From Eubacteriales bacterium (GTDB taxonomy: Bacteria > Bacillota > Clostridia > Oscillospirales > Acutalibacteraceae), in the NCBI GenBank assembly GCA_030533225.1, contig JAUNJO010000009.1, positions 1 through 41,893 of the forward strand: a stretch of DNA of 41,893 nt, in the 5' to 3' direction. Both the position numbers and the translations under genes were made by a program. Shown in pieces: positions 15,944 to 38,756 of this stretch. The notes beneath the pieces are model-generated. The model had not been told where the DNA came from. It searched no databases and saw only the letters and a list, made by a program, of their open reading frames with translations. Positions within the stretch are counted from its first letter, which is position 1; every line of letters begins with the position of its first letter.

Positions 15944-15948
15944 TTTCA

Positions 15949-16365: not shown

Positions 16366-16407
16366 GTGGTTTTTGAGAAAATATTAAACTTTTTTGTTTA
16401 TATTATC

Positions 16408-16436
16408 TTGACAGAACTTAAACATTTGTGTTATAC
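16408..16436 (+). promoter_or_regulatory. Promoter of the XRE regulator gene
   Basis: -35 TTGACA (16408-16413), 17-bp spacer, -10 TTATAC (16431-16436). The spacer contains ACTTAAAC, which resembles the half-sites near the xis promoter and suggests autoregulation. Confidence 0.65.
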
Positions 16437-16472
16437 TTAATGCAAAGCACATAAGTAAGGAGTGAAATTACT

Positions 16473-23639: not shown

Positions 23640-23684
23640 GAAAAAAGGTTACATTTGTCTACCTGACAAATGTGACCTTTTTTC
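23640..23684 (+). terminator. Hairpin with 20-bp stem (copy 2)
   Basis: The same stem and loop as 23040-23084 with one G-T wobble and one extra A/T pair. It lies 70 bases after the zinc-ribbon gene and heads module 2. The preceding GGCAC also resembles the tRNA 3' end before copy 1. Confidence 0.8.
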
Positions 23685-23686
23685 AA

Positions 23687-23852
23687 TGATATCCGTTCCT
23701 TGGCACGAACGGGTGATATATCTTCGATATGATATCGCTCTGCGAGCGATGATATACGCTTCGCGTATGAAGGGAACGGATATTATATCATATTTGCGGA
23801 GCAAATATATCATACGGCTTGCCGTATATCATATCGCGTAAGCGATATATCA
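23687..23852. repeat. Nested mini-palindrome array 2
   Basis: About 165 bases with the same design as array 1 but different sequence: CCGTTC/GAACGG, ATATC/GATAT, ATCGCTC/GAGCGAT, ATACGC/GCGTAT, ATTTGC/GCAAAT, ACGGC/GCCGT and ATCGC/GCGAT hairpins. Spacers are ATGAT in the left half and ATATCAT in the right half, complementary to each other. The outer ATATCCGTTCC (from 23689) can also pair with GGAACGGATAT (to about 23782), giving an alternative fold. Confidence 0.75.
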
Positions 23853-23881: not shown

Positions 23882-23904
23882 TACCGCAAAAGAAGGTGCT
23901 TATT

Positions 23905-24618
23905 ATGGCTATGTGGAATCCTTGGCGCGGTTGTCATAAATGCAGTGACGGATGTCTTCATTGCTATATACATAAAGGCGATGCAAAAAGGCAGGTCAAC
24001 ACAAATGATATTGTGAAAACGAAAGATTTTTATAAGCCAATCGAACAGCTGAAAAACGGCAATTACAAGATGAAATCCGGAACGGTTTATCTTTGTTTTT
24101 CTACGGATTTTTTAATTGAAGAAGCAGATTCGTGGCGGGGTGAATGTTGGTCCATGATAAAGAAGCGTCAGGACTGCACATTTCTCTTTCTCACAAAGCG
24201 TATTGAACGGTTTAATCAGTGTGTTCCAGATGACTGGAATTACGGATATGAAAATGTAGTTGTATGCTGTACTGTTGAAAATCAGAAAAACGCTGACAAA
24301 AAGCTCTCTGTTTTTCGCTCTTTACCCATAAGGCACAAGTGCATCACAGCACAGCCGTTACTTGAAAGAATTGATATTGAACAGTATCTTGATGATATCG
24401 AACTTGTTGTGGTCGGCGGTGAATCCGACCGCAACGCCAGGCCGCTTAACTATGACTGGGTATTGGATATCAGGGAACAATGTGTCAGAAAGAATGTCAG
24501 TTTTGAGTTTCGGCAATGCGGAACCCATTTCATAAAAGACGGAAAACAGTACAAGTTACAAACAAAAGATCTGTGCAGTCAGGCGAAAAAGGCAGGAATA
24601 AATTTCACAGCACTTTGA
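23905..24618 (+). CDS. DUF5131 / phage Gp37-Gp68 family protein
   Basis: The 237-residue protein begins MAMWNPWRGCHKCSDGCLHCYIHKGD, the Cys-rich signature of the Gp37/Gp68 (DUF5131) family, with C10, C13, C17 and C20 probably holding an Fe-S cluster as in radical-SAM-like enzymes. Later family motifs are FLTKRIERF, VVCCTVENQ, QPLLERIDI, VVVGGESDRNARPLNYDWV and FRQCGTHFI. The reaction is not known. AGAAGG precedes the ATG; the GTG at 23896 is less likely. It is the gene of module 2, with a good promoter at 23853-23881 and a terminator at 24637-24668. Such genes are often phage- or element-borne. Confidence 0.88.
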   Translation: MAMWNPWRGCHKCSDGCLHCYIHKGDAKRQVNTNDIVKTKDFYKPIEQLKNGNYKMKSGTVYLCFSTDFLIEEADSWRGECWSMIKKRQDCTFLFLTKRIERFNQCVPDDWNYGYENVVVCCTVENQKNADKKLSVFRSLPIRHKCITAQPLLERIDIEQYLDDIELVVVGGESDRNARPLNYDWVLDIREQCVRKNVSFEFRQCGTHFIKDGKQYKLQTKDLCSQAKKAGINFTAL

Positions 24619-25156: not shown

Positions 25157-26053
25157 ATGTATATAAGCTATGACCACTATAGGATTTTTTACTTTGTTGC
25201 AAAATACGGCAGTTTCACCAAAGCCGCAGATATGTTACTCAGTAATCAGCCAAACCTTACAAGGACTGTCAGAAGTTTAGAAACCTCTTTGGGCTGCACT
25301 CTCTTTGAGCGTTCAAACAAAGGGGTAAAACTGACTGATGACGGGGAAAAACTATATGAACACATTTCCATTGCCTTTGAACACATAGAAGCAGGTGAAC
25401 GGGAGATTTCGCAAAAGAACAGTCTTAAAAAAGGTGTTTTATCTATCGGTGCAAGTGAAATTGCACTGAGGTGTTTCCTGCTGCCTATCCTCAACGAATA
25501 CAGGCATAAATATCCGGGAATACAGATTAAGATTTCAAATGTCTGTACCCCTCAGGCGGTTACAATGCTGAACAACGGCCTGGTTGACCTGGCATTCGTG
25601 ACCACTCCTATAAAATCTGACCCGGAGCTTAAGAAAATCAATCTCAAAAGCCTGAATGAAACAGCAATCTGCGGAGAAGCATTCAGAAATTTGATTAATC
25701 CCGAAAAACCTGTGTCATTTCGCAGAATAACCAAATACCCAATTGTCTCCCTTGGACCGAAAACTTCAACCTTTGAGTTTTATCTTAAACTGTTTTTGGA
25801 ACACGGATGTACTTTCTCATCGGACATTGAAGCCGCAACCGCAGACCAGATAATCCCCTTGGTTAAGCACAACTTAGGAATAGGATTTGTGCCCGAGGAC
25901 TTTATTGAAGCTAACCGTGAAGAAACAGGGATATATGTAATTCCTCTCAAAGAGGAAATACCTAAGAGATATATTTCGCTGATCAAGAGAAAAGGGCGCA
26001 CCCTCTCCCCTCCTGCCAAGGAGCTTGAAAGAATAATAACCGACAATTTGTAA
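25157..26053 (+). CDS. LysR-family transcriptional regulator
   Basis: The 298-residue protein shows the N-terminal LysR helix-turn-helix (FYFVAKYGSFTKAADMLLSNQPNLTRTVRSLETSLGCTLFERSNKGVKLTDDGE, residues ~9-70). The C-terminal effector-binding region is periplasmic-binding-protein-like (from LSIGASEIALRCFLLPILNEY). The ligand is unknown. GGAG lies upstream of the ATG. It is divergent from the PQ-loop gene and convergent with the dicarboxylate operon. It could regulate either, but the divergent gene is the usual LysR target. Confidence 0.93.
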   Translation: MYISYDHYRIFYFVAKYGSFTKAADMLLSNQPNLTRTVRSLETSLGCTLFERSNKGVKLTDDGEKLYEHISIAFEHIEAGEREISQKNSLKKGVLSIGASEIALRCFLLPILNEYRHKYPGIQIKISNVCTPQAVTMLNNGLVDLAFVTTPIKSDPELKKINLKSLNETAICGEAFRNLINPEKPVSFRRITKYPIVSLGPKTSTFEFYLKLFLEHGCTFSSDIEAATADQIIPLVKHNLGIGFVPEDFIEANREETGIYVIPLKEEIPKRYISLIKRKGRTLSPPAKELERIITDNL

Positions 26054-26058
26054 ATAAT

Positions 26059-26095
26059 AAAGGCTATGATGTTTATCTAAAGCACCATAGCCTTT
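26059..26095. terminator. Bidirectional terminator between LysR and the succinate operon
   Basis: Stem AAAGGCTATG / CATAGCCTTT with A/T tracts on both sides, between two convergent genes. Confidence 0.7.
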
Positions 26096-26102
26096 AATCT
26101 AT

Positions 26103-27326
26103 TTAGAATATCATAAACAATAGCTGAGACACCACTACAACAGAGATTAGTGCTATAGGATAGGTTGCGGCATAGGCAGCGGCAACATCCTCGGTACCTG
26201 CTACATTAATGAGCGTTCCCAAGGCAGGGGTACTTGTCATACCGCCTGTGATTGAGCCTAAGTTGTTGAGAAGCGACAGTTTCAGAACATACTTTGCGAA
26301 AATATAACCGATAACCATAGGGATGACAGTCATGAGGAAGCCGTACAGGAAATATATGGGCTTGAACTCGGCAACAAATCTTACACCGCCGGCTACACCT
26401 GCTCCTGCGAGGAAAAGCATCAGACCGAATTCTCTGAACACCTTGAGAGTTCTGTCAGAGGGCATAAGACTGATTTTTCCTATTCTGCCGAAATGTCCCA
26501 TGATAAGAGAAACAAGCAGACAGCCGCCTGTGGTTGTAAGGGAGAAACTGCCTATCTTTAGGAGACCGACAAATATTCCTATGACAGCTGCTAAAGCAAA
26601 CATACCTATACCAAACTCGTCAATATGGATAAGTTTGCCCTCGTACTTTTTCTTAGTGCTTGCCTCCGCAGTTTTCGTGAGTTCTTTGCGCTCTGCATTC
26701 ATGTCAGCCTTTGTGAGCTTAGGCATAAGCTGAACAAAGAGAACAACTCCGATTACACCGAACAGATAAGCTATTCCGTAGCCGGTTACTACCGTTCCCG
26801 ACAAATCACCGGCAGTCTCTCTTGCCGCTGTGAAAGCAGGAGTTGAGGTGAGTGCACCTGAAAGGAGACCTACTACCATAGCAGTAAGGTTATCGTAATT
26901 CTGCTCACCTGTGAGTCTGCCGATACAGATACAGCCTGCGGCTACAAGACCGCCTGTAACAATAATTATAAGACCCAAGAGAACATAAGACTTAAAATTT
27001 TGCTTGAGATTCGAGAAAAACTTAGGGCCTGCGATAAAGCCTACGGAAGTTACAAAGAGTACAAGACCGATGTTATCAACAATCTTTAGAGCCTCGGTTG
27101 CATAGTCAACCTTTACACCGCCCTCTTCCACAACAAGCTGTGCTACCAAGGGGTCATAGAGGAAGCAACCAAAAAGGATTGCGATAACAAACACTCCTGC
27201 TGTACCAAGGGAAATTCCTTTAATTGTTATTCTTCCCAGGGCATAACCTACTGCAGCAATAGCAAAGAGACAGAACATTAAAAATGAAACTTGAGTTATG
27301 GAAATCGCTCCGCCAAATAAATTCAT
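26103..27326 (-). CDS. AspT/YidE/YbjL-type carrier, probable dicarboxylate transporter
   Basis: The 407-residue membrane protein has about 10 helices. Two repeated signatures are GLLSGALTSTPAFTAA and GSITGGMTSTPALGTL, characteristic of the aspartate:alanine exchanger (AspT) family. The two central TrkA-C domains common in AspT and YidE are missing; a short charged linker (KADMNAERKELTKTAEASTKKKYEGK) takes their place. It is the last gene of the malate-fumarate-succinate operon, 15 bases after frdA, so succinate or fumarate/succinate exchange is the likely job. AAGGAGGA precedes the ATG. The substrate is inference from context. Confidence 0.82.
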   Translation of the reverse strand: MNLFGGAISITQVSFLMFCLFAIAAVGYALGRITIKGISLGTAGVFVIAILFGCFLYDPLVAQLVVEEGGVKVDYATEALKIVDNIGLVLFVTSVGFIAGPKFFSNLKQNFKSYVLLGLIIIVTGGLVAAGCICIGRLTGEQNYDNLTAMVVGLLSGALTSTPAFTAARETAGDLSGTVVTGYGIAYLFGVIGVVLFVQLMPKLTKADMNAERKELTKTAEASTKKKYEGKLIHIDEFGIGMFALAAVIGIFVGLLKIGSFSLTTTGGCLLVSLIMGHFGRIGKISLMPSDRTLKVFREFGLMLFLAGAGVAGGVRFVAEFKPIYFLYGFLMTVIPMVIGYIFAKYVLKLSLLNNLGSITGGMTSTPALGTLINVAGTEDVAAAYAATYPIALISVVVVSQLLFMIF

Positions 27327-27341
27327 GAAACTTAGTCCTCC

Positions 27342-28946
27342 TTAAATGCTCTTCTGATTTGTGTAGTTAGGAAGAAGCTTAGGAGAAACTACATCAGTAT
27401 CAATGCCGGCACCCTCGATTTCGCTCTCAAACTTTGCCACATGGTCGAGAGTAAGCTTGCCCACCTGTGTATTTTTAGCAGTTGCGGCGGCGTTTTTGCC
27501 TGCGCTTCTGCCGAATACGATAATATCAAGGAGTGAATTTCCCATAAGACGGTTCTTGCCATGGATACCTCCGACTGCCTCACCTGCAACAAAGAGATTC
27601 TTCACGCAGGTTGACATACAGTTATCACTGATATCAAGACCGCCGTTCTGATAATGGAGTGTGGGATAAACAAGAATAGGCTCTTTGCGAATATCAATGC
27701 CATACTGACCGAACATACGCATCATGGCAGGAATTCTTGCTTCGATTGTGCCCTCGCCGCCGATTGCCTCAATCATAGGTGTATCCAGCCAAACTGCTGT
27801 GCCGTTGCCTGTGTTTACACCGTTCTCACGGGTTGAACACTCGCGAATGATGGAAGCGGCAGTAACATCACGGGTCTCAAGAGGATGCATGAACACCTCG
27901 CCGTTTACATTGACAAGCTTTGCACCGAGAGAGCGCACCTTCTCGGTTACAAGTGCACCGAAAATCTGTACGGGGTAAGCCGTGCCTGTGGGATGATACT
28001 GCAATGTTTCGGCATAGAGAAGCTTTGCGCCTGCTCTGTAGCCGAGCACAAGTCCGTCGGCAGTTGCGCCGTAGTGGTTGGATGTGGGGAATCCCTGATA
28101 GTGCATACGGCCGGCACCGCCTGTCGCGATAATAACAGTCTTTGCCTTAGCGACCATAAGGTCGCCTGTTTCCATATTCATAAGAACAGCACCGGCAGCG
28201 TTTCCGTTATCATCAAGGATAAGTTCGATAGCGGCAGTAAAGTCTATAACCGGGATACCGCGGTTGAGAACTTCGTCACGGAGAGTTCGCATAATCTCGG
28301 CACCGGAATAGTCCTTAGCCGCATGCATACGCTTACGGGATGTACCGCCGCCGTGGGTGGTAATCATTGTGCCGTTTTCATCTTTATCAAACTCAACACC
28401 AAGCTCATTGAGCCACTTAATTGCTTCGGGAGCGTCGCAAACGAGCTTTGAGAGAAGCTCTCTCTTTGCAGCAAAGTGACCGCCGCCGAAAGCATCAACA
28501 AAGTGGATTGCCGGAGAATCGTTGGGCTTATCGGCAGCCTGAATACCGCCCTCAGCCATCATTGTGTTTGCGTCACCCATACGGAGCTTGGTAACAACCA
28601 TAACCTCTGCCCCTGCTTCGTTTGCCTCGATAGCGGCCGAAGCTCCGGCGCCGCCGCCGCCGATAACGAGTACATCTGTCTCATAATCGGGAGCGTCAAG
28701 GTTTACATCCTCGGCAGTAATTCGGCTGTGAGCCTGAAGAATCTCTGCAAGCTCAATGGGAACCATCTCGCCCTTATTCGGACCGATTTTAAGTTCTGCG
28801 AACTGGTCCTTCCTGTAGTCGGGATGATACTGTGCCAAAAGCTCCTCTTTCTGTGAAGCTGTCATACGCTCAGGCTCAAGGGCTATATTCTTGGCTCTTG
28901 CCTGTTCAACTAATTTTAACGAATTCTGAAATTCCTGTGAGTACAT
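27342..28946 (-). CDS. frdA: Soluble fumarate reductase, flavoprotein subunit
   Basis: Reduces fumarate to succinate. The 534-residue protein has the FAD-binding motif VIGGGGAGASA (residues ~94-104), the FAD/substrate segments THGGGTSRKRMHAAKDYSG and LQYHPTG, and active-site residues near RECSTRENG and LHYQNGGLDIS. The ~85-residue N-terminal extension is unlike classic FrdA and is like thiol:fumarate reductase/soluble types. There is no membrane-anchor gene, so the enzyme is expected to be cytosolic and to take electrons from FrdB and the adjacent Flx/Hdr proteins. AAGGAGGG precedes the ATG. Confidence 0.92.
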   Translation of the reverse strand: MYSQEFQNSLKLVEQARAKNIALEPERMTASQKEELLAQYHPDYRKDQFAELKIGPNKGEMVPIELAEILQAHSRITAEDVNLDAPDYETDVLVIGGGGAGASAAIEANEAGAEVMVVTKLRMGDANTMMAEGGIQAADKPNDSPAIHFVDAFGGGHFAAKRELLSKLVCDAPEAIKWLNELGVEFDKDENGTMITTHGGGTSRKRMHAAKDYSGAEIMRTLRDEVLNRGIPVIDFTAAIELILDDNGNAAGAVLMNMETGDLMVAKAKTVIIATGGAGRMHYQGFPTSNHYGATADGLVLGYRAGAKLLYAETLQYHPTGTAYPVQIFGALVTEKVRSLGAKLVNVNGEVFMHPLETRDVTAASIIRECSTRENGVNTGNGTAVWLDTPMIEAIGGEGTIEARIPAMMRMFGQYGIDIRKEPILVYPTLHYQNGGLDISDNCMSTCVKNLFVAGEAVGGIHGKNRLMGNSLLDIIVFGRSAGKNAAATAKNTQVGKLTLDHVAKFESEIEGAGIDTDVVSPKLLPNYTNQKSI

Positions 28947-28960
28947 AATACCGTCCCTCC

Positions 28961-29635
28961 TTACTTCTCGATTTCTCTTGTATTGTAAAGCTCTTTCATC
29001 TCGTCGATGGGTTTATTCATAAGAGCTTCAATAAGTTCATTGAATGTGCCGTCTTTAATCTCCTGTACCCTATTCTCGAGGTGAGCACTCTTGGGAGCTA
29101 AATACTTACCGTTGATACGGCGGGCAAGCATTGCAACCTGAGGATGAGAGATACCGGCAGGGCAACGGGAGGAGCAAACTCCGCACATAACGCAGTCGAA
29201 GGACTCTTCTGCACACTTCTCAAAGTCTCCGCGCTGGGCGTATGCTATGTACTGCATAACATTGAGCTTCTGGGTACATGCCTTTGTGCAGGCATTACAG
29301 CCGATACATGAGTAAATCTCGGGATAAAGCTGCATCATCACTGCCTCGGTGGTGCTGACCTTTTCAATATCGTAAACCTGCTTAACAAGCGGGAAGAACG
29401 GCAGAGTTGCAATATACATATTGTCCTCAACCTTAGTCTGACAAGCAAGGCAAGCCTTCAGCTCCTGCTGGCCTTTGATTCTGTAAATAGTCGCACAGGC
29501 ACCGCAGAAACCGTTTCGGCAGCCACATCCGCGTACAAGCTGATAGCCTGCGTACTCCATTGCAGTCATGATTGTAAGATGGTCCGGCACTTGATATTTT
29601 TTGCCGAACAAGAATATATTTACCGTATTTTCCAT
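28961..29635 (-). CDS. frdB: Fumarate reductase iron-sulfur subunit
   Basis: The ~224-residue protein combines a plant-type [2Fe-2S] domain (CGCRNGFCGAC ... CLAC, residues ~36-65) with two [4Fe-4S] motifs (CIGCNACTKAC and CVMCGVCSSRCPAG). It should pass electrons to FrdA. Unlike methanogen TfrB it has no C-terminal CCG domain; that function is encoded separately as hdrB. The ATG at 29635 has GGAGG upstream; the open frame to 29722 overlaps the next gene and has no ribosome site. It lies 14 bases upstream of frdA and 22 after the flxA-like gene. Confidence 0.9.
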   Translation of the reverse strand: MENTVNIFLFGKKYQVPDHLTIMTAMEYAGYQLVRGCGCRNGFCGACATIYRIKGQQELKACLACQTKVEDNMYIATLPFFPLVKQVYDIEKVSTTEAVMMQLYPEIYSCIGCNACTKACTQKLNVMQYIAYAQRGDFEKCAEESFDCVMCGVCSSRCPAGISHPQVAMLARRINGKYLAPKSAHLENRVQEIKDGTFNELIEALMNKPIDEMKELYNTREIEK

Positions 29636-29657
29636 GTTTATTTCCTCCAAATCCTCA

Positions 29658-30491
29658 TTAGTACTCATCAGGGAGTTCCGAAATCTCGTCCATGCGGAAA
29701 ACGGGACCGTCTTTGCAGACATACTTTGCGCCTACATTACAGCGTCCGCACTTACCTACTCCGCATTTCATTTTAAGCTCCAGGGTTGTGTAAATCTGAG
29801 TTTTCTCGAATCCTAAAGCTACAAGGCCGTCAAGTGTGAACTTGATCATAATGGGAGGTCCACAGATTATGGCGGTCTTATTTGTTTCAAATCCTAACTC
29901 CTTGACGAAGTTGGGAACGAAACCCACATGGCCGTCCCAACCCTCCTGAGGATTGTCGATTGTAAGATGAACATCAACCCCTGTGTCCTTGGTCCACTCC
30001 TCAATGATTTCCTCATAATCGAGAAGGTCATCTTTGGAACGGGAACCGTAAACAATGTCGATTTTACCGTAACGATCCCGGTAATGACGGCAGTAGTTGA
30101 TAACGGAACGCAGGGGAGCAAGACCTACACCGCCTGCAATGAACAGCAGATTCTCTCCGGCAAACTCATCATCAACAGGGAAAGGTTTGCCGTAAGGTCC
30201 TCTGACAGTAAGCTGCTGACCTACCTCTGCGGCATGGAGCCAGTCGGTAACACAACCGCACTTCTTAATCGAAAACTCCATATACTCGGTGTTTGTTGGT
30301 GAAGAAGTGATTGAGAACATCGCTTCGCCCACACCGGGGATTGAAAGCATAGCACACTGACCCGGTCTGTGGTCAAAAGGCTTTTTGCCGTCAGGAGTCA
30401 GAACGCGAAAAGTTTTAATATCGGGGGTGTCAATACGAATATCGGTAATTACGCCCACAACAGGAATTAAGGTATCATTTACATTACGCAT
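29658..30491 (-). CDS. FAD/NAD(P)-binding electron-input subunit (FlxA-like)
   Basis: The ~277-residue protein belongs to the ferredoxin-NADP-reductase/DHODH-PyrK/hydrogenase-gamma family. The FAD site is PGQCAMLSIPG, the nicotinamide/FAD region IAGGVGLAPLRSV, and a C-terminal [2Fe-2S] binding motif is CGVGKCGRC...C. In Flx-Hdr complexes this subunit oxidises NADH and feeds HdrA. The ATG at 30491 follows GGAGGTAATGAAA; the ATG at 30497 is too close to the site. It overlaps the gene upstream by a few bases and precedes frdB. NADH rather than NADPH is assumed from the family. Confidence 0.88.
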   Translation of the reverse strand: MRNVNDTLIPVVGVITDIRIDTPDIKTFRVLTPDGKKPFDHRPGQCAMLSIPGVGEAMFSITSSPTNTEYMEFSIKKCGCVTDWLHAAEVGQQLTVRGPYGKPFPVDDEFAGENLLFIAGGVGLAPLRSVINYCRHYRDRYGKIDIVYGSRSKDDLLDYEEIIEEWTKDTGVDVHLTIDNPQEGWDGHVGFVPNFVKELGFETNKTAIICGPPIMIKFTLDGLVALGFEKTQIYTTLELKMKCGVGKCGRCNVGAKYVCKDGPVFRMDEISELPDEY

Positions 30492-31512
30492 TTTCATTAC
30501 CTCCCAGGGCTTTCATTACTTTTACAATATTCATAGAAATCGGGCATTTTGAAAGGCATCTGCCGCAGCCTACACAACTGAATATGCCGTCGTTATTCTC
30601 TGGATAATACACAAGCTTGTGCATAAATCTCTGGCGGAATCTCTCAACCTGAGAGTTGCGGTTGTTGCCGTGTGCCATTCTTGTAAAATCGGAATACATA
30701 CATGAGTCCCAACAGCGATAGCGGATAACCTCACTGCCGGTGTTGAACTCCTTGATGTCATAGCATTGACAGGTGGGACATACAAAAGTGCATGTACCGC
30801 AGCCGAGGCATGATTCACTGAGGGCGCTCCACAAGGGAGAATCGAAAAATTCCTTTGTCTTACCGCTTCCGAAAGCATCTGTGCCCAAGTCCTTGAGAGG
30901 AAGCTTGCTCAAAATCTTTGCGGTCTTTTCCTTCTGTGCGTCTACCGCTTTAGTATCGCATTCCTCGGAAAATGCTGAAAGCTTCTCAAGAAGAGCATCA
31001 CCCTTTTCGGTGTTTGCCTCCATATAGATTGCATCAGCTTCTCTCCAAAGTGTAACATCACCTGCAGGATTTGTACAGTCAATACCGAAAGAGGAACAGA
31101 AGCAAGTCTCGGCGGGGCGTGAGCAAGCAACGGAAACCACAGTTGCATGTTCTCGGCGGTTCTTATAAAAGCTGTCAACAGGGTCTGCAAGGAAAACTCT
31201 GTCGAGGATATCGAAGCTTCTGACATCGCAGCCGCGAGCACCGAAGATTACAAAATCCTCGTTTTCGTCGCGAATGTCGATTACTTCAATGCTTTTGCCC
31301 TCCATCTTGAACTTCATGAGATTTTCCGATTGGGGGAAGAAGAAGTCCTTAGCGCTTCTCTCTGTATTAAGAGCATCGCTCCAAACATCACCCTCCTGCC
31401 ATTTTTTGAACTCGGCTTTGCCGTCACTGCGGTCTACGGGAAGGTATAATGACATAGATTCATTTATAGCACCGAACATCTGAGGAAATTTATCTGCTGT
31501 AATTTTAAGCAT
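30484..31512 (-). CDS. 4Fe-4S dicluster electron-transfer protein (FlxB/C-like, first of two)
   Basis: The 342-residue protein ends in two 4Fe-4S motifs (CLGCGTCTFVCPTCQC and CVGCGRCLSKCPIS). A further Cys-rich patch lies near the middle (ETCFCSSFGIDC). The N-terminal domain resembles the beta-subunit/AsrA-type fold found with hydrogenases and sulfite reductases. Two such proteins sit side by side here (31505-32503 is the second). They probably relay electrons between the NADH-oxidising subunit and HdrA. AGGAGGGATACAG precedes the ATG. I do not assign FlxB or FlxC individually. Confidence 0.82.
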   Translation of the reverse strand: MLKITADKFPQMFGAINESMSLYLPVDRSDGKAEFKKWQEGDVWSDALNTERSAKDFFFPQSENLMKFKMEGKSIEVIDIRDENEDFVIFGARGCDVRSFDILDRVFLADPVDSFYKNRREHATVVSVACSRPAETCFCSSFGIDCTNPAGDVTLWREADAIYMEANTEKGDALLEKLSAFSEECDTKAVDAQKEKTAKILSKLPLKDLGTDAFGSGKTKEFFDSPLWSALSESCLGCGTCTFVCPTCQCYDIKEFNTGSEVIRYRCWDSCMYSDFTRMAHGNNRNSQVERFRQRFMHKLVYYPENNDGIFSCVGCGRCLSKCPISMNIVKVMKALGGNENA

Positions 31513-32503
31513 CTGTATCCCTCCTGTTCACTGCATCTGAAGGCTCAATATCATCGAGAGTATAGTCAACCAAAGGTGCCCGTGAGCCTTCCTCTGCACC
31601 TGCCTGATAATCACCGTAAAGCTCGTTGATATCCTTGATAAACTTACGGTTGAGAAGGTGAAGGGGAATGTTCTGAGGACATACTCTTGAACACTCACCG
31701 CAGTCGGTGCAACGGCCTGCAACGTGGAATGCGCGAATAATGTGGAACATCTTTTCCTCAAACTCGTTGGTGGGAGCTTTATTCTCCACAGGTGACTGAG
31801 GATTATCAAAAACGCATTTCTCACAGGTACAGGCAGGACATACATCACGGCAAGCATTACAGCGAATGCATTTTGAAAGTTCATTCTGCCAAAACGCAAA
31901 GCGCTCGTCAGGAGTCATAGCCTCAATTTTTGCTACCTCATCGAAGCGGTCTGAGTCGATAACTTCACCGGTCTCGCCTAAAAGCTCGTCGAAAGCGACA
32001 TGCTTTTTACTCTTACAGTTTACGCATCTCTCTGCCAGAACATCAGAGGTCTTAATAACTTTTGCGTCATCATCATAGAGAGTAGTGACAAGGAGGTTTT
32101 CCCCATCAGCATCTATCTTAACGATACCGTCGTTGACTGTTGCCTTGATCTTAGTTATGTCAGCCATACCCTCACAGGGGATACCCACTGCATATACCTT
32201 TTCCCTGTCGAATCTGTGCTCGGTGAGGAGCTGATTGAAGCTGTAGGTATCGCAGGGCTTCAGGAATACAAGAATTTTTCCCTCAGACTTTGAAGTCTTG
32301 GAAATAAGATATTTTGAGAAGTTTGCACCGCAAAAATCGTTCCATACGAAATCTTTGGTGATTTCCTCCACGGTTTCGAAAATCGCAGGAGTGATATCAT
32401 AATCAAACTCACCGCGTTTCCAACCGAGAACGGAAGTTACTGTGCCGTTTGAGATAAGACCTGAGGCTTTTTCTATAAGTGTTTCACGGGTTATTTTTTG
32501 CAT
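31505..32503 (-). CDS. 4Fe-4S dicluster electron-transfer protein (FlxB/C-like, second of two)
   Basis: The 332-residue protein is a paralogue-like companion of the 30484 gene: CVNCKSK near the middle, then CIRCNACRDVCPACTC and CTDCGECSRVCPQNIP. The extra Cys in each motif suggests two or three [4Fe-4S] clusters. GGAGG precedes the ATG. It overlaps mvhD by 13 bases upstream and the next gene by 8 bases, so the subunits are translationally coupled, as expected for a stable complex. Confidence 0.82.
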   Translation of the reverse strand: MQKITRETLIEKASGLISNGTVTSVLGWKRGEFDYDITPAIFETVEEITKDFVWNDFCGANFSKYLISKTSKSEGKILVFLKPCDTYSFNQLLTEHRFDREKVYAVGIPCEGMADITKIKATVNDGIVKIDADGENLLVTTLYDDDAKVIKTSDVLAERCVNCKSKKHVAFDELLGETGEVIDSDRFDEVAKIEAMTPDERFAFWQNELSKCIRCNACRDVCPACTCEKCVFDNPQSPVENKAPTNEFEEKMFHIIRAFHVAGRCTDCGECSRVCPQNIPLHLLNRKFIKDINELYGDYQAGAEEGSRAPLVDYTLDDIEPSDAVNRRDTDA

Positions 32504-32925
32504 CTCAAATCCTCCAATCTCTTATTCTCGCCAAGCTTTGCAACTGTCTCAACAAAATCGTTCATTGTTGCGGCAAATTTTGCACCCTCAGCGGCGGAAA
32601 CCCACTCAACGCGAGTTCTCTCACGCTCAATGCCCAGGTAATCAAGCATTGAAAAGAGGAGTGACATACGGCGGCGAGTGTAGTAGTTGCCCGATGTATA
32701 ATGGCAGTCACCGGGGTGACAGCCGCAGAGAATTACACCGTCTGCACCGCGCTGAAAAGCACGAAGAATAAACATGGGGTTTACTCGGCATGAGCAGGGC
32801 ACACGGATAATTTTAACATCGGCAGGATAGTTCAAACGGTTGTTGCCTGCAAGGTCAGCGCCGGCATAGGAACACCAGTTACAGCAGAATGCAACAATCA
32901 AGGGTTTATATTCGTTCATCGACAT
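32491..32925 (-). CDS. mvhD: MvhD/FlxD-like [2Fe-2S] electron-transfer subunit
   Basis: The 144-residue protein matches the methyl-viologen hydrogenase delta subunit: FCCNWCSYAGADLAG near the start, then RVPCSCRVNP and CGCHPGDCHY, with five or more cysteines for a [2Fe-2S] cluster. It transfers electrons to HdrA. The gene overlaps the hdrA stop, with GGAGGT just upstream of the ATG. It is present in all known Flx-Hdr and Mvh-Hdr sets. Confidence 0.92.
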   Translation of the reverse strand: MSMNEYKPLIVAFCCNWCSYAGADLAGNNRLNYPADVKIIRVPCSCRVNPMFILRAFQRGADGVILCGCHPGDCHYTSGNYYTRRRMSLLFSMLDYLGIERERTRVEWVSAAEGAKFAATMNDFVETVAKLGENKRLEDLRCKK

Positions 32926-34910
32926 ATTGCATCCACCTCCGCGATAATCTGACTTGTTGTGAAGCCTCTAAGGTCCATAGCACCTGAAGGACAAGCTACG
33001 GTACAAGCACCGCAGCCCTGACATACTGCAGGATTAACCTTTGCAACTCGGCGCATCTTAGTGCTTCGGTCGGGCATTCTGAATTCTTTGGTTTCATAAG
33101 TGATTGCTCCGTAAGGACAAACATTTGCACAGGATGAGCATCCGTTACACATAATCTCATCGGAGCTTGCGACACAGGGGTTGCCTGTGAGTTTATCCTT
33201 GGAGAGCAAGCCGATAACCTTTGCCGCAGCGGCGGAAGCCTGAGAAACAGTCTCGGGGATATCCTTCGGTCCCTGACAGGCACCTGAAAGGAAAACGCCT
33301 GCTGTTGGACTTTCTACGGGACGAAGCTTGGGGTGTGCTTCGGTGAAGAAATCGTTGGTATCCATGGAAGCTGTGAGCATTGTCGCAATGCTTCGTGCGG
33401 ACTTGTCGGGCTCGATAGCAGCCGCAAGCACAACCAAATCAGCGTCAATGTGAAGCTGTTTATTATTGAGCATGTCGGAGGCTGTTACTTTGAGTTTCTT
33501 ACCCTCGGGAGAAACCTTGCCAACCATACCCTTTACATATTTAACGCCGTATTCCTCAACTGCTCTGCGGTAGAATTCATCAAAGCTCTTACCGGGAGTT
33601 CGTACATCTATGTAGAACACATAAACCTCGGTGTCGGGATACTTATCTCTTGTGAGCATTGCGTGCTTTGCGGTGTACATACAGCAAATCTTGGAGCAAT
33701 ACTCCTTGCCCTTTTCGGCGCAGTTTTCACATCTTGAGCCCACACACTGTACGAACACGATGGTGTGGGGATGCTCAAGGTCGGAGGGCCTTAAAAGCTT
33801 GCCTGCAGTAGGACCTGCGGCGTTTGTAAGACGCTCAAACTCAAGCGAAGTAATAACATCCTTGGACTGATTGTATGCAAATTCATCGAATTTGTCCATG
33901 CTGATGGGATTAAAGCCTGTTGCGGCAACGATTGCGCCGTACTTCTCTTCGATGATTTCGTCTTTCTGCTTATAGTCAATAGCACCTGCGGTACAAATCT
34001 TCTCACAAAGACCACACTTGCCGTTTTTGAGCATATTGCATGCATTGGGATCAATGGTTGCTACCTTGGGAACAGCCTGTGCAAAAGGAATGTAAATTGC
34101 CGGACGGTTATCCATACCCAGGTTAAACTCATTGGGATTTTTCTTCATGGGACACTTTTCGACACAAGCACCGCAACCTGTGCAGATGTCCTCATTGACA
34201 TAACGGGCTTTTTTCTTAATCTTAACCTCGAAATTACCCACAAAGCCTGAAACATCCTGAACCTCGCTGTATGAGAAGATGCGAATCTTATCGTTTTGAG
34301 CCACATCAACCATCTTGGGAGTTAAGATACAGGCGGCGCAGTCAAGCGTCGGGAAGGTTTTGTCAAGCTGAGCCATTTTGCCGCCGATAGTAGGCTTTGT
34401 CTCAACTATATCTACAGGGAAACCTGCTTCCGCAATATCAAGAGCAGTCTGGATACCTGCGATACCGCCACCGATTACAAGAGCTCTTTTGGTAACATTG
34501 GACTCGCCGGGAGTGAGAGGTGCATTAAGAGCAACCTTGGCGACTGCGGCTTTGCCGAGGATAATAGCTTTCTCAGTACCGGTAGCCATATCCTTATGTA
34601 CCCAAGAGCACTGCTCACGGATATTGGCAATCTCAACCATATAAGGATTGAGACCTGCGGCGGCGGCTGTTTTTCTGAAAGTAGCCTCGTGCATACGGGG
34701 TGAGCAGGAACAAACTACGATACCGTCAAGTTTATGTTCCTTAACAGCATCAATAATCATGTTCTGTCCTGCCTGGGAACACATATATTGATAGTTGGTG
34801 GAGAAGACTACGCCGGGCTCACTCTTGAGAGCCTCGGAAACGGCTTCAACATCAACTGTGCCGGCGATATTACTACCGCACCAGCATACAAATACACCGA
34901 TTCTTAGCAT
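32916..34910 (-). CDS. hdrA: HdrA-like flavin-based electron-bifurcating subunit
   Basis: The 664-residue protein has an N-terminal Cys pair (VCWCGSN), a Rossmann FAD motif VIGGGIAGIQTAL (residues ~145-157), CTGCGACVEKCPM and CGLCEKICTAGAI clusters, CCMYTAKHA, and a C-terminal 2[4Fe-4S] ferredoxin domain (CNGCSSCANVCPYG and CQGCGACTVACPSG). HdrA is the site of flavin-based electron bifurcation, sending electrons to ferredoxin and, via HdrBC, to a disulfide or other acceptor. AAGGAGGAGAC precedes the ATG. The size matches bacterial and methanogen HdrA. Confidence 0.94.
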   Translation of the reverse strand: MLRIGVFVCWCGSNIAGTVDVEAVSEALKSEPGVVFSTNYQYMCSQAGQNMIIDAVKEHKLDGIVVCSCSPRMHEATFRKTAAAAGLNPYMVEIANIREQCSWVHKDMATGTEKAIILGKAAVAKVALNAPLTPGESNVTKRALVIGGGIAGIQTALDIAEAGFPVDIVETKPTIGGKMAQLDKTFPTLDCAACILTPKMVDVAQNDKIRIFSYSEVQDVSGFVGNFEVKIKKKARYVNEDICTGCGACVEKCPMKKNPNEFNLGMDNRPAIYIPFAQAVPKVATIDPNACNMLKNGKCGLCEKICTAGAIDYKQKDEIIEEKYGAIVAATGFNPISMDKFDEFAYNQSKDVITSLEFERLTNAAGPTAGKLLRPSDLEHPHTIVFVQCVGSRCENCAEKGKEYCSKICCMYTAKHAMLTRDKYPDTEVYVFYIDVRTPGKSFDEFYRRAVEEYGVKYVKGMVGKVSPEGKKLKVTASDMLNNKQLHIDADLVVLAAAIEPDKSARSIATMLTASMDTNDFFTEAHPKLRPVESPTAGVFLSGACQGPKDIPETVSQASAAAAKVIGLLSKDKLTGNPCVASSDEIMCNGCSSCANVCPYGAITYETKEFRMPDRSTKMRRVAKVNPAVCQGCGACTVACPSGAMDLRGFTTSQIIAEVDAICR

Positions 34911-34922
34911 TTTGTCTCCTCC

Positions 34923-35309
34923 TTACTTAGTATATTTTCTGAATGCGCTGACAAGAAGCTGCTGGGGAGTTTCTTCGTCAAGCATTTTAGGTACATTATC
35001 AGCCAAAAGGTGATTTGCGCCCTGAGGTCTTGTTTTCATAAGACGGACTGCATCAATGAGCTTAGCAGGCTCAACTCCCCGGGGACATCTCTCCGCACAG
35101 GCAAAGCAAGTAAGGCATCTGTAGACAGACTCGGAATTGAGGAGGGGCTCAATGTTGCCGCCCTTAATCATTGCAACAAACTGATGAGGATGAAACTCCA
35201 TCTCGTCGTATGCAGGGCAAGTGCCCGAGCATTTACCGCAAGCCATACATTTCGCCGGATTGACACCGCTTATGCGGACAATCTCGTCTCTCATATCTAA
35301 ATTAGTCAT
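34923..35309 (-). CDS. hdrC: HdrC-like iron-sulfur subunit
   Basis: The 128-residue protein carries two [4Fe-4S] motifs (CMACGKCSGTCPAYDEM and CLTCFACAERCPRGVEP), as in heterodisulfide reductase subunit C, and the helical tail typical of HdrC. It bridges HdrA and HdrB. AAGGAGGTAGC precedes the ATG; the gene overlaps hdrB by 8 bases. Confidence 0.93.
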   Translation of the reverse strand: MTNLDMRDEIVRISGVNPAKCMACGKCSGTCPAYDEMEFHPHQFVAMIKGGNIEPLLNSESVYRCLTCFACAERCPRGVEPAKLIDAVRLMKTRPQGANHLLADNVPKMLDEETPQQLLVSAFRKYTK

Positions 35310-36087
35310 TTGCTACCTCCTTAACACCCAAAGCCTCGGCAAGAAGCTCTGTGAAGTAAACAACAGGAATGGCAGCGCCGTTTTTAATAAGATTGTAACG
35401 GCACAAAGGACAGGCTGTAACCATAATTTCAGCCTCGTTCATGAGTGCAGACTCCATAACACGCTCACTCTTGCTCTTTGCAAGTGCAGGGCTTTCCAAG
35501 GATATGTAACCGCCGCAGCACTCGTTACGGTAGGAATAGTAAACGGGAGTTGCACCGATCGCCCTAATGAAATCCTCCATAATCTGAGGATTCTCCGGGT
35601 CATCAAATGCCATAACCTTGTTAGGTCTGAGAAGCAAACAACCGTAGTAAGCGGCAATTTTCTTGCCCTTTAAGGGATTAACTACCTTTTCGGCAATTTT
35701 ATCAAAGCCTACTACATCACGGAGCATCTCAAGGTAATGAATAACCTCTGCGCTTCCGTCGTAGGGATCCTCACCCATATAGCGATTGACCTTATTTGCA
35801 AATTCTTCGTCTTTCATAGCGAAGTTTGTCTGCTTAATAACATTGTGACAGGCAGAGCATACGGTGACAAGGGCTCTCTGTTTGCTCTGTGCGTCTTTGA
35901 GTGCACGAACAGAGGAAAGCTTTGTTGCTACCTCATCCTTGGCGGTTGTAAACACACCGCCGCAGCACTGCCAATTTTCAATTTCCTCTAAGGTGACACC
36001 CAAGACTTCGGCACATTTTCTTGCATACATATCAAGATCCTTGGCTTTGTTCTTCAGTGTACAGCCGGGAAAATAACTCAGTATCAT
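35302..36087 (-). CDS. hdrB: HdrB-like catalytic subunit (two CCG domains)
   Basis: The 261-residue protein has two CCG motifs: FPGCTLK...CQCCGGVF and YYGCLLLR...CCGGYISLES followed by CPLC. These hold the unusual non-cubane [4Fe-4S] clusters that reduce disulfides in methanogen HdrB. In bacteria the natural acceptor is unknown or DsrC-like. The CxxC at CPLCRYN is also present. It is the first hdr gene of the operon, 56 bases after fumC, with GGAGGCGAAAAA upstream. Confidence 0.93.
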   Translation of the reverse strand: MILSYFPGCTLKNKAKDLDMYARKCAEVLGVTLEEIENWQCCGGVFTTAKDEVATKLSSVRALKDAQSKQRALVTVCSACHNVIKQTNFAMKDEEFANKVNRYMGEDPYDGSAEVIHYLEMLRDVVGFDKIAEKVVNPLKGKKIAAYYGCLLLRPNKVMAFDDPENPQIMEDFIRAIGATPVYYSYRNECCGGYISLESPALAKSKSERVMESALMNEAEIMVTACPLCRYNLIKNGAAIPVVYFTELLAEALGVKEVAND

Positions 36088-36143
36088 TTTTTCGCCTCCG
36101 ATTAAATAAATGAAATATACTAATTAGGTATGAGGCCTATATA

Positions 36144-37520
36144 TTAAACCATTTCTTCGGGATGGAAAACCTCATCAAATCTCTCGGCAGTTAAGAAACC
36201 AAGCTCAACGCAGGCTTCTTTGAGAGATATGTTATCCTTAAATGCTTTCTTTGCTGTCTTTGCCGCATTTTCATATCCGATGTAAGGATTCAGAGCTGTG
36301 ACCAGCATAAGAGAGTTGTGAAGATTATGGTGCATCTTTTCTTTATTCGCCTTAATTCCCACCGCGCAGTTCTTATTAAATGAAAGAATTGCCTCGGCAA
36401 GGAGTCTTGCAGACTGCAAAAAGTTATAGATAGCAACAGGCATAAACACATTCAGTTCGAAATTGCCCTGTGAAGCCGCCATACCCACAGCCACATCATT
36501 ACCCATAACCTGAACTGCAACCATAGTTACAGCCTCGCACTGTGTAGGATTAACCTTACCGGGCATAATAGAGGAGCCGGGCTCATTCTCTGGAATGAAA
36601 ATCTCACCGAGTCCGTCACGGGGACCTGAGGCAAGCCAGCGTACGTCATTTGCAATTTTCATCATATCCGCGGCAAGCGCCTTAATTGCACCGTGGGCAA
36701 ACACTAACTCGTCCTTTGAAGTAAGTGCATGGAATTTGTTGGTTGCCGTAACGAAAGGCTTTCCGGTGAGGTTAGCCACTTCTGCGGCCACTGCGGTATC
36801 AAAGCCCTTTGGAGTGTTGAGGCCTGTACCGACTGCCGTACCGCCCAGTGCAAGCTCATAGAGAGGCTCTACCGAACGCTCAAGAAGTTCAACATCACGC
36901 TCAAGGCTGCTTCTCCAGCCGCTTATCTCCTGACTGAATTTAATGGGGGTTGCGTCCTGAAGATGAGTTCTGCCACTCTTAACGATGCCCTCATTCTCTG
37001 CTTCCAATCTCTTAAAGGTTTCGATAAGCACCTTTACTGCAGGAATAAGCTTATCCTTGAGGCTCAAAACTGCGGCAATGTGCATTGCTGTGGGGAAAGT
37101 GTCGTTAGAGGACTGGCTCATGTTTGAATCATCGTTGGGATGAATGAGTTTTTTGCCTAAAATCTCATTGGCTCTGTTTGCGATAACCTCATTGGTGTTC
37201 ATGTTGGACTGAGTACCTGAGCCTGTCTGCCAAACCACCAGAGGAAAATGCGCGTTGAGTTTTCCGGCGATAACCTCGTCGCAGGCTGCTTTGATAGCTT
37301 CGAGCTTCTCATCGGTCATCTTTTCGGGTTTCAGTTTATTGTTAGCTATAGCTGCTGCCTTCTTGAGAATACCGAAGGCGTGAATAATCTCACGAGGCAT
37401 GGTCTCTATGCCCACACCGATTTCAAAATTTTCGTGACTGCGCTGAGTCTGAGCAGCCCAAAGTACATCTGCAGGTACTTTGACCTCGCCCATTGAATCG
37501 TGTTCTATACGATAATCCAT
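36144..37520 (-). CDS. fumC: Class II fumarase
   Basis: Interconverts malate and fumarate without a metal cofactor. The 458-residue protein has the class II signature GSSIMPGKVNPTQCE and the catalytic His in GRTHLQDATPIKFSQE, with other conserved patches GSGTQSNMNTNEVI and NDDSNMSQSSNDTFP. GGAG lies about eight bases upstream of the ATG. It is the second gene of the operon, 24 bases after the dehydrogenase gene, and supplies fumarate to FrdAB. Confidence 0.96.
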   Translation of the reverse strand: MDYRIEHDSMGEVKVPADVLWAAQTQRSHENFEIGVGIETMPREIIHAFGILKKAAAIANNKLKPEKMTDEKLEAIKAACDEVIAGKLNAHFPLVVWQTGSGTQSNMNTNEVIANRANEILGKKLIHPNDDSNMSQSSNDTFPTAMHIAAVLSLKDKLIPAVKVLIETFKRLEAENEGIVKSGRTHLQDATPIKFSQEISGWRSSLERDVELLERSVEPLYELALGGTAVGTGLNTPKGFDTAVAAEVANLTGKPFVTATNKFHALTSKDELVFAHGAIKALAADMMKIANDVRWLASGPRDGLGEIFIPENEPGSSIMPGKVNPTQCEAVTMVAVQVMGNDVAVGMAASQGNFELNVFMPVAIYNFLQSARLLAEAILSFNKNCAVGIKANKEKMHHNLHNSLMLVTALNPYIGYENAAKTAKKAFKDNISLKEACVELGFLTAERFDEVFHPEEMV

Positions 37521-37544
37521 TGTAATGCTCCTTATTCACTGAAA

Positions 37545-38489
37545 TCAAATTTTAATCTGACTGATAGTGCCCTTTAAGGTCTCTGCGCTGTGATGTAAAG
37601 CCTTGAGCTCCTCATCATTCAGGGGAAGCATAACCTTGGAATGAGCACCTGTATTGCCTACGATATTGAGAAGGCTTAAGCAAACATCCTCGATGCCGTA
37701 CTCGCCGTGGAGCATTGTGGAAACGGTAAGAGTGGTGTCGATACCTGAAAGGAGACACTTGCAGATGTGAGCAACTGACATTGAAACTGCGTAGAAGGTT
37801 GCACCCTTGCGGGAGATAACCTTTGCACCTGAGCTTCTGACATATTCCTCAACCTGTGCTTTGTCAAAGTTTTCCATTCTTGCTTCCTTGTTGAGTAAGC
37901 AATCAGCATACTGCTCAATGGGAACATTGGAAATGTTGGCAATAGACCAAGGAATAAAGGAACTGTCGCCGTGCTCACCTAAAACATAAGCGTGAACATT
38001 CTGCTGATTTACTGCATAGTACTCGGAAATTCTTGAACGCAGACGGGCGGTATCAAGAATTGTACCGGAACCGATAATCTGTCTGTCGGGAAGACCTGAG
38101 TACTTGGAAAAAGCGTAGGTCAAAATATCTACAGGATTACTTACAATAACATAAGTAGCATTGGGAGCATACTTGAGAATCTGGGGTGCGATAGACTTGA
38201 GAACATCAACATTAGCCTGTGCCAAGTCAAGTCTTGACTGGTCAGCCTTACGAGCCATACCGGAAGTGATAACTACGATATCGCTGTCAACAGCATCGCT
38301 GTAGCTTCCTGCATAAACCTGACAGGGATGACAGAAAGGTGTACCCTGACGGATATCAAGAGCCTCACCTAAAGATTTGCTGTCGTTTACATCAATCATT
38401 ACGATTTCAGAAGCTGTACCTGCAGTTGTGAGAGTGTAAGCAATAGTTGCACCTACATTACCGCTGCCTACGATTGTAATTTTGTTCAT
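37545..38489 (-). CDS. mdh: Malate dehydrogenase of the LDH-like type
   Basis: Reduces oxaloacetate to malate with NADH. The 314-residue protein has the NAD-binding motif GSGNVGATIA and Asp33 (VMIDVN, NAD preference), the active-site SNPVD, Asp146 with Arg149/151 in LDTARLR, and His173 in GEHGDSS. The substrate-specificity loop reads MARKADQSR: Arg80 stands where lactate dehydrogenases have Gln and malate dehydrogenases have Arg. Automatic annotation may call it L-lactate dehydrogenase. The ATG at 38489 follows GCGAGG; the open frame to 38573 has no ribosome site and would precede the promoter-proximal leader. It is the first gene of the operon. Confidence 0.88.
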   Translation of the reverse strand: MNKITIVGSGNVGATIAYTLTTAGTASEIVMIDVNDSKSLGEALDIRQGTPFCHPCQVYAGSYSDAVDSDIVVITSGMARKADQSRLDLAQANVDVLKSIAPQILKYAPNATYVIVSNPVDILTYAFSKYSGLPDRQIIGSGTILDTARLRSRISEYYAVNQQNVHAYVLGEHGDSSFIPWSIANISNVPIEQYADCLLNKEARMENFDKAQVEEYVRSSGAKVISRKGATFYAVSMSVAHICKCLLSGIDTTLTVSTMLHGEYGIEDVCLSLLNIVGNTGAHSKVMLPLNDEELKALHHSAETLKGTISQIKI

Positions 38490-38589
38490 TTTTTGTACCT
38501 CGCTTTTAGTTATTAATATTATTGCTTGCTTAAGAAACAGGGATTTTGAAACACATATTATTATGCATCCCAAATTGCCCCATTTTACA

Positions 38590-38626
38590 TTGTTATTATT
38601 TTAACAAACTTTTTGAAATAATGCAA
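38590..38626 (-). promoter_or_regulatory. Promoter of the malate-to-succinate operon with overlapping Rex-type operator
   Basis: -35 TTGCAT (38621-38626), 17-bp spacer, -10 TAAAAT (38598-38603), minus strand. An 18-bp palindrome TTGTTA-N6-TAACAA covers 38590-38607 and overlaps the -10. It closely matches the Rex consensus (TTGTTAANNNNTTAACAA). Rex leaves DNA when NADH is high, so the operon should be induced when reducing power accumulates. Confidence 0.7.
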
Positions 38627-38730: not shown

Positions 38731-38756
38731 AAACGGCATGAAAATGCATGCCGTTT
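38731..38756 (-). terminator. Rho-independent terminator of the fhs-tsaE-tsaB-rpiB operon
   Basis: Stem AAACGGCATG / CATGCCGTTT (10 bp) with a 6-base loop, 18 bases after the rpiB stop on the minus strand. Confidence 0.75.

What the first reader, a model, noticed from the sequence alone, without database searches (positions are those of the whole stretch)
26103..38626. One operon joins malate dehydrogenase, fumarase, Flx/Hdr bifurcation proteins, soluble fumarate reductase and an exporter
Twelve closely packed minus-strand genes encode every step from oxaloacetate to exported succinate, plus a complete HdrABC-MvhD-FAD/NAD reductase set. In known Flx-Hdr complexes NADH oxidation is bifurcated to ferredoxin and a disulfide. 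Here the set lies directly between fumarase and fumarate reductase, so fumarate (directly through FrdAB, or through a thiol/disulfide carrier) may be the high-potential acceptor. That would be a soluble, electron-bifurcating fumarate respiration: NADH drives both ferredoxin reduction and succinate formation. The assignment of components is from sequence; the coupling is inference.
Basis: partly seen in the sequence, partly recalled or inferred. Interest (0 to 1): 0.8.

Follow-up and report, generated by a model that had tools for sequence, protein, structure and literature searches.

The report
Gut bacteria's electron-splitting succinate operon
A gut bacterium carries twelve neighbouring genes that together would make and export succinate while, very probably, using the reaction to charge a low-potential electron carrier; the arrangement is real and widespread in gut Clostridia, but a matching operon and the same idea were already in print for another bacterium and the coupling itself is still unproven.

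Summary
Observation confirmed: twelve same-strand genes (26103-38489) encode malate dehydrogenase, class II fumarase, HdrBCA, FlxDCBA, FrdB, FrdA and an AspT-family exporter. Interpretation partly supported. In 391 genomes of the class, this FrdB is in 54 and MvhD in 59, shared by 53. Of 61 neighbourhoods read, 49 hold all nine flx-hdr-frd genes in this order, 11 are cut by contig ends, one has the set permuted. Against it: four class genomes have a distant Flx-Hdr type without this FrdB, and outside the class 17 of 38 loci with this FrdB show no convincing Hdr gene. FrdA keeps fumarate-site residues, HdrB both cluster motifs; no UbiA or DsrC match in the genome. NADH/ferredoxin bifurcation with direct HdrBC-to-FrdAB wiring is the best reading, but inference. 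It is not new: the same block order and proposal are published for Pseudoclostridium thermosuccinogenes (PMC7282089), an analogous one for tubeworm symbionts (PMC6315080). Added here: class-wide conservation, permuted operons, and HdrBC-FrdAB as a module met with several different neighbours.

The parts
37545..38489 (-). NAD-dependent malate dehydrogenase of the L-lactate dehydrogenase family (Arg at the specificity position)
36144..37520 (-). class II fumarase FumC
   Evidence: TIGR00979 above cut-off
35302..36087 (-). HdrB-like subunit, two CCG domains, all ten ligand cysteines present
34923..35309 (-). HdrC-like subunit, two [4Fe-4S] motifs
32916..34910 (-). HdrA flavin subunit, FAD fold plus ferredoxin domains; best PDB relative 5odc_A
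32491..32925 (-). FlxD = MvhD/FlpD subunit
   Evidence: PF02662
31505..32503 (-). FlxC-type iron-sulfur subunit (name by position and cluster motifs)
   Evidence: conserved cysteines
30484..31512 (-). FlxB-type iron-sulfur subunit, AsrA/sulfhydrogenase-beta-like
29658..30497 (-). FlxA, FAD/NAD(P)-binding reductase (AsrB/HydG-like), presumed NADH entry
28961..29635 (-). FrdB: [2Fe-2S] domain plus two [4Fe-4S] motifs, no CCG domain
27342..28946 (-). FrdA flavoprotein, about 86-aa N-terminal extension, short C-terminus, Asn127 in place of the FAD-binding His
26103..27326 (-). AspT/YidE-family transporter, probable succinate exporter
26050..26096 (-). stem-loop followed by T-rich stretch, possible operon terminator
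   Evidence: read by eye; not in the scan
38731..38756 (-). terminator-like hairpin (10 pairs) between rpiB and the operon
   Evidence: where the number of such sites (13) is no more than in shuffles (13.3)
25157..26053 (+). convergent LysR-family regulator beside the operon

Best explanation
A soluble, quinone-free succinate branch. PEP goes to oxaloacetate by the GTP-dependent PEP carboxykinase elsewhere in the genome, then to malate (MDH), fumarate (FumC), succinate (FrdAB) and out (AspT-type exporter). NADH is oxidised by FlxA; electrons pass through FlxB/C and FlxD to the FAD of HdrA, where they are split: one stream reduces ferredoxin, the other runs HdrC-HdrB-FrdB-FrdA to fumarate. Net: 2 NADH + 2 Fd(ox) + fumarate gives 2 NAD+ + 2 Fd(red) + succinate. 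Reduced ferredoxin would then serve Rnf and [FeFe] hydrogenases. Shown: gene content, order, conservation, retained residues. Inferred: complex formation, bifurcation, direct HdrBC-FrdB contact, export of succinate, the fate of ferredoxin.
For: Twelve-gene operon. FrdB and MvhD co-occur in 53 of 391 genomes; the one FrdB genome without MvhD (G128) and one MvhD genome without FrdB (G090) are operons cut by contig ends. 60 of 61 neighbourhoods are the intact or contig-cut operon; in the last (G324) the nine genes are permuted with frdBA before hdrB, at 32-59% identity. Outside the class, 5 of 38 loci have all nine genes, 11 have HdrA-like, MvhD and a different input part (HdrB and HdrC seen in nine, the other two cut), and 5 have hdrC-hdrB-frdB without hdrA seen: HdrB and HdrC were seen in 19 of the 21. 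HdrB's best family model is SdhE, FrdA's is TfrA, both below the curated cut-offs. Fumarate-site residues are in 139 of 139 FrdA rows and HdrB's ten cysteines in 113 of 113. Own genome: GTP-PEPCK, RnfC and four Fe-hydrogenase-domain matches; no UbiA (34), no DsrC (39). With -320 mV (NADH) and +33 mV (fumarate), as, and -420 to -500 mV for ferredoxin (recalled), the net reaction is about -33 to -49 kJ/mol.
Against: No biochemical test. HdrB keeps the complete disulfide-reductase cluster motifs, so a thiol route is open. Four class genomes (G094, G122, G127, G210) have a distant Flx-Hdr type (FlxA 46-50% identity) without this FrdB. FrdB of this type (46-61% identity) shows no convincing Hdr gene in 17 of 38 loci outside the class, among them one beside malic enzyme and ones near cytochromes, so it can take other donors; a few of the 17 lie near contig ends. 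In the analogous tubeworm cluster tfrAB did not follow the expression pattern of its hdr-flx genes (PMC11636981). No structure prediction could be run.
Confidence: 0.6

Rival explanations
1. Thiol relay: HdrB reduces an unknown low-molecular-weight disulfide and FrdAB, as a thiol:fumarate reductase, re-oxidises the thiols with fumarate.
For: HdrB keeps ten of ten cluster cysteines in 113 of 113 rows; FrdA's best model is TfrA; [quoted passage not shown]
Against: FrdB lacks the HdrB-like CCG domain that the TfrB model carries; no DsrC found in the genome; no thiol carrier is known to me for these bacteria, and CoM/CoB synthesis genes were not searched.
Confidence: 0.17
2. Plain NADH:fumarate reductase: the complex passes both electrons to fumarate and ferredoxin is not an obligatory product.
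For: The downhill NADH-to-fumarate step needs no second acceptor; nothing in the sequence proves bifurcation.
Against: HdrA keeps Cys389/405/409/410 and the ferredoxin-domain cysteines in 118 of 118 rows, and the window HdrA aligns over residues 3-662 with the methanogen HdrA 5odc, known as a bifurcating enzyme (recalled).
Confidence: 0.13
3. Two separate enzymes merely co-expressed, Flx-Hdr serving another acceptor.
For: This FrdB type has no convincing Hdr gene nearby in 17 of 38 loci outside the class; a distant Flx-Hdr type stands without it in four class genomes.
Against: In the class survey the window's Flx-Hdr type was not seen whole without frdAB, and the set also stays together in permuted operons.
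Confidence: 0.07

Closest known systems
'Succinate operon' of Pseudoclostridium thermosuccinogenes (PMC7282089, passages; preprint 10.20944/preprints201912.0288.v1, seen only as a reference)
   Same: Fumarase, Flx-Hdr (a locus-tag range that counts seven), fumarate reductase (two tags) and a putative succinate transporter in one row; GTP-PEPCK; same coupling proposed
   Different: Here malate dehydrogenase is the first gene of the operon; the order inside the published Flx-Hdr block was not seen and the sequences were not compared
FlxABCD-HdrABC of Desulfovibrio vulgaris (Ramos 2015, seen only as cited)
   Same: Same seven subunit kinds
   Different: There the acceptor proposed is a disulfide and the role is in ethanol metabolism; here frdAB is attached
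rTCA clusters of tubeworm symbionts and Thioflavicoccus (PMC6315080, PMC11636981, passages)
   Same: tfrAB interspersed with flxABCD-hdrABC; direct shuttling to fumarate reductase proposed
   Different: Autotrophic, with 2-oxoglutarate:ferredoxin oxidoreductase in the cluster
Thiol:fumarate reductase TfrAB of methanogens
   Same: FrdA scores best with the TfrA model; FrdB matches the N-terminal part of TfrB
   Different: The HdrB-like half of TfrB is a separate protein here
8-methylmenaquinol:fumarate reductase SdhABE
   Same: An HdrB-like subunit works with a fumarate reductase
   Different: Quinol linked; no quinone prenyltransferase found here

Membership tests
FlxABCD-HdrABC NADH dehydrogenase/heterodisulfide reductase | Seven subunits FlxA-D and HdrA-C together | tested here: met
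   the FlxB/FlxC names rest on family type and position
FlxABCD-HdrABC NADH dehydrogenase/heterodisulfide reductase | HdrA cluster ligands retained | tested here: met
FlxABCD-HdrABC NADH dehydrogenase/heterodisulfide reductase | NADH oxidation coupled to ferredoxin reduction | not testable with these tools
   needs purified protein
P. thermosuccinogenes-type succinate operon | fumarase, Flx-Hdr, fumarate reductase, transporter in one row | tested here: met
   compared with the published gene list, not with its sequence
Thiol:fumarate reductase TfrAB | TfrB with C-terminal HdrB-like (CCG) domain | tested here: not met
   FrdB is 224 aa without a CCG match
Thiol:fumarate reductase TfrAB | TfrA score above curated cut-off | tested here: not met
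   341.7 bits against 718
Quinol:fumarate reductase (FrdABCD) | Covalent-FAD histidine in FrdA | tested here: not met
   Asn127; Asn in 138 of 139 rows, His in 1
Quinol:fumarate reductase (FrdABCD) | Membrane anchor genes beside frdAB | tested here: not met
   none in the operon; not searched genome-wide
Quinol:fumarate reductase (FrdABCD) | A quinone (UbiA-type prenyltransferase) | tested here: not met
   no PF01040 match in the own genome, found in 14 of 14 control genomes
Fumarate reductase, chemistry | Fumarate-binding and proton-donor residues of E. coli FrdA | tested here: met
   His318, Thr334, Glu335, Arg338, Arg359, His431, Arg466, 139 of 139 rows each; residue roles recalled

The most novel reading that the evidence does not exclude
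HdrBC-FrdAB is a portable soluble fumarate-reducing module. In gut Clostridia it is bolted to NADH-oxidising Flx-HdrA-MvhD, giving a widespread quinone-free, electron-bifurcating fumarate respiration; in other lineages of the phylum the same module is joined to other electron inputs (a second HdrA-like protein and an unassigned protein; in single loci checked, beside a 2-oxoacid:ferredoxin oxidoreductase or a succinyl-CoA-synthetase-like gene) or stands alone.
Probability: 0.45. Interest if true: 0.65.

Novelty: new member of a known kind. Interest (0 to 1): 0.48.

Why it matters
Succinate is an important fermentation product in guts. If fumarate reduction in these apparently quinone-less bacteria charges ferredoxin, it conserves energy, links succinate to hydrogen production and changes redox budgets used in rumen and gut models. 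The conservation survey turns a proposal made for one cultured species into a testable trait of many gut Clostridia.

Tried and rejected
Lactate dehydrogenase for the first gene: top family score, rejected because Arg occupies the specificity position in 86 of 86 rows. Chance clustering: rejected. Quinone-linked reductase: rejected for this genome on FrdA, operon content and UbiA grounds. Horizontal transfer of the operon: its identities are no higher within the window's genus than across families, while formate-THF ligase is 77-82% in five of the seven same-genus genomes with a match and 58-68% in eleven genomes of other families with near full-length matches. The test is weak: of the three same-genus operon carriers one (G013) is at 65% and two gave no match. 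No tree was built. Structure-based test of FrdA's N-terminal extension: not possible. A paper search for Cth_0345 gave nothing.

Rows dropped: one search kept only hits covering over 85% of the query without an internal stop; one search then left out sequences outside 85-115% of the window length (HdrB 1, HdrC 4, MvhD 5, FlxC 1, FrdB 3, exporter 2). Survey and named loci overlap, so rows are not independent.
Full report
WHAT IS THERE. The minus-strand cluster runs from the ATG at 38489 to the stop at 26103: mdh, fumC, hdrB, hdrC, hdrA, mvhD (flxD), flxC, flxB, flxA, frdB, frdA, exporter. Gaps are 24, 56, -8, 12, -10, -13, -8, -14, 22, 14 and 15 nt. A terminator-like hairpin (38756-38731) lies between rpiB and the operon (such sites are no more frequent there than in shuffles); a stem-loop read by eye lies after the last gene, and a LysR-type regulator converges on it. 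The genome (1.79 Mb, 95 contigs, completeness 100 by the tool) is not named; close homologues are in metagenome-assembled Oscillospiraceae/Clostridia from goat, sheep, deer, cattle, buffalo, yak and horse guts, among others (record titles).

THE ENZYMES. Malate dehydrogenase: an LDH-family protein with Arg80 where LDH has Gln (LDH position 102, recalled), Arg in 86 of 86 rows. FrdA: aligned to E. coli FrdA (1kf6), the fumarate-site residues are kept, 139 of 139 rows; the histidine that carries FAD covalently is Asn127 (138 of 139; L177 has His). Non-covalent FAD fits a one-way fumarate reductase (recalled for Fcc3 and E. coli mutants; inference). FrdA has an N-terminal extension of about 86 residues, less like its relatives than the core (0.59-0.66 against 0.85-0.87 mean identity), and ends 62 residues after the FAD-domain match; the TfrA model is matched only to position 424 of 546. 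FrdB has a [2Fe-2S] domain and two four-cysteine [4Fe-4S] motifs; its cysteines are in 134-136 of 136 rows, except Cys66 in 127 (numbering from four residues before the ATG). It has no CCG domain. HdrB has two complete CCG motifs (113 of 113 rows). HdrA aligns over residues 3-662 with the methanogen HdrA 5odc.

SURVEY INSIDE THE CLASS. Among 59 near relatives (own included), nine have this FrdB (E below 1e-100): own, three of 35 same-genus genomes, five others. Among 391 genomes of the class (own included), 54 have it, in 36 of 223 genera, and PF02662 (MvhD) is in 59. 53 share both; Fisher p 1.7e-57, which ignores relatedness. The exceptions: G128 has FrdB on a contig cut in flxC; of six genomes with MvhD only, G090 is this operon cut in flxA, G080 has distant HdrA, HdrC and MvhD, and four (G094, G122, G127, G210) carry a distant Flx-Hdr type without this FrdB (FlxA 46-50%, HdrA matches 21-53%). 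I read 61 neighbourhoods (8 relatives, 53 class members): 49 complete and in order, 11 cut by contig ends, one (G324) different. In G324 the order is two class-I-fumarase-like genes, frdB, frdA, hdrB, hdrC, hdrA, mvhD, flxC, flxB, flxA: the complete set, permuted (the fumarase genes recognised by eye). Of the 80 named loci, 63 are complete in order and 17 cut; some are the same contigs as survey loci.

PATHWAY GENES ARE SWAPPED, THE CORE IS NOT. Of 44 survey loci with room upstream, 26 have fumC and 35 mdh; of 51 with room downstream, 35 have the AspT-type exporter. Of eight loci without a fumC hit that I chose and read, five have a class I fumarase pair after frdA, three do not (one is cut there) (checked by Pfam in L069, both subunits, and L202, one). 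L202 has a PF00939-family carrier instead of the AspT type. Replacement by unrelated genes of the same function supports the succinate reading. The AspT family includes a succinate exporter (PMC9527358, abstract in the listing).

OUTSIDE THE CLASS: RESULTS THAT CUT BOTH WAYS. A phylum draw (398 genomes, own included) gave 38 further genomes with FrdB at 46-61% identity; all 38 stretches were scanned. Five have all nine genes: four permuted as in G324, one (L266) as in the window but with hdrC before hdrB. Eleven have HdrA-like sequence in more than one stretch, MvhD and, in ten, a weakly FlxC-like protein (21-25%) before frdBA; hdrC and hdrB are seen in nine of them, in the same cluster but not adjacent to frdBA, and two (L262, L273) are cut by the contig end. 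The unassigned protein of L260 has no Pfam match; L260 is followed by a 2-oxoacid:ferredoxin oxidoreductase gene and L270 by a succinyl-CoA-synthetase-like gene. Five have hdrC-hdrB-frdB(-frdA) without hdrA or flx seen, one of them on a 3.8-kb contig (L252). Seventeen have no convincing Hdr gene: seven with class I fumarase shortly before frdB (in L244 with a malic enzyme between), ten others (L250 has a weak HdrC-like hit of 32%), among which L278 has a ferredoxin-cytochrome b561 protein and L267 a multihaem cytochrome nearby. So frdAB can work with other donors. Where an Hdr part is present, hdrB and hdrC were seen in 19 of 21 loci, the other two being cut, which points to HdrBC as the partner of FrdB (inference). 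tblastn with these queries can miss divergent Hdr genes, and L243, L244, L257 and L277 lie near contig ends.

THE REST OF THE GENOME. Found: GTP-PEPCK, RnfC, four Fe-hydrogenase-domain matches. Not found: ATP-PEPCK (33), UbiA prenyltransferase (34), DsrC (39). Other quinone genes, membrane anchors, ferredoxins and CoM/CoB synthesis were not searched.

MECHANISM. Best: NADH to FlxA, FlxB/C, FlxD, HdrA; split to ferredoxin and to HdrC-HdrB-FrdB-FrdA-fumarate. Supporting logic for direct wiring: in TfrB an HdrB-like part is fused to the FrdB part, in MFR an HdrB-like SdhE serves SdhAB (families recalled; model scores), and here HdrB would be the separate equivalent. HdrB's SdhE score (147.8 bits) is only slightly above its CoB-CoM HdrB score (133.4), and both are below cut-off. 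All steps of coupling are inference.

PRIOR WORK. PMC7282089 (passages read) describes the P. [quoted passage not shown] PMC6315080 and PMC11636981 (passages) propose direct transfer from Hdr-Flx to thiol-fumarate reductase in symbionts. Searches 'bifurcating fumarate reductase' (0 papers) and 'fumarate reductase' with 'Flx-Hdr' (1 paper) showed no biochemical proof. The wider listings were read as listings; passages of six papers in all were opened. The library lacks most subscription journals.

VERDICT. Observation confirmed; interpretation partly supported; a new member of an already proposed kind, with useful new evidence on conservation and modularity.

Noticed in passing
window 11941-16976: Likely integrated mobile element: Mob_Pre relaxase (11941-13218), tyrosine integrase (14852-15952) and an HTH regulator (16473-16976), with ORFs between them that were not searched.
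   Followed up: partly
window 23684-23760 (+): Gut-1 small RNA (RF01706, 60.8 bits) between a tRNA-Leu (22954) and the operon region.
   Followed up: no
L260, L261, L262, L265, L268-L270, L272-L274, L276: frdBA preceded by MvhD, repeated HdrA-like sequence and (in ten) an unassigned weakly FlxC-like protein, with hdrC and hdrB further up in nine; in L260 near a 2-oxoacid:ferredoxin oxidoreductase gene, in L270 near a succinyl-CoA-synthetase-like gene. Possibly a reductive-TCA version with another electron donor.
   Followed up: partly
L247, L252, L263, L264, L271: hdrC-hdrB-frdB(-frdA) without hdrA or flx seen: perhaps a split thiol:fumarate-reductase-like unit; L252 is only a 3.8-kb contig.
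   Followed up: partly
window 26103-38489 against relatives: Operon identity does not follow taxonomy (same genus no closer than other families), which may mean exchange among gut Clostridia; weak test.
   Followed up: partly
window 23896-24618 (+): Protein with a weak match to a radical SAM mobile pair model (39 bits, cut-off 355) next to Gut-1 RNA.
   Followed up: no
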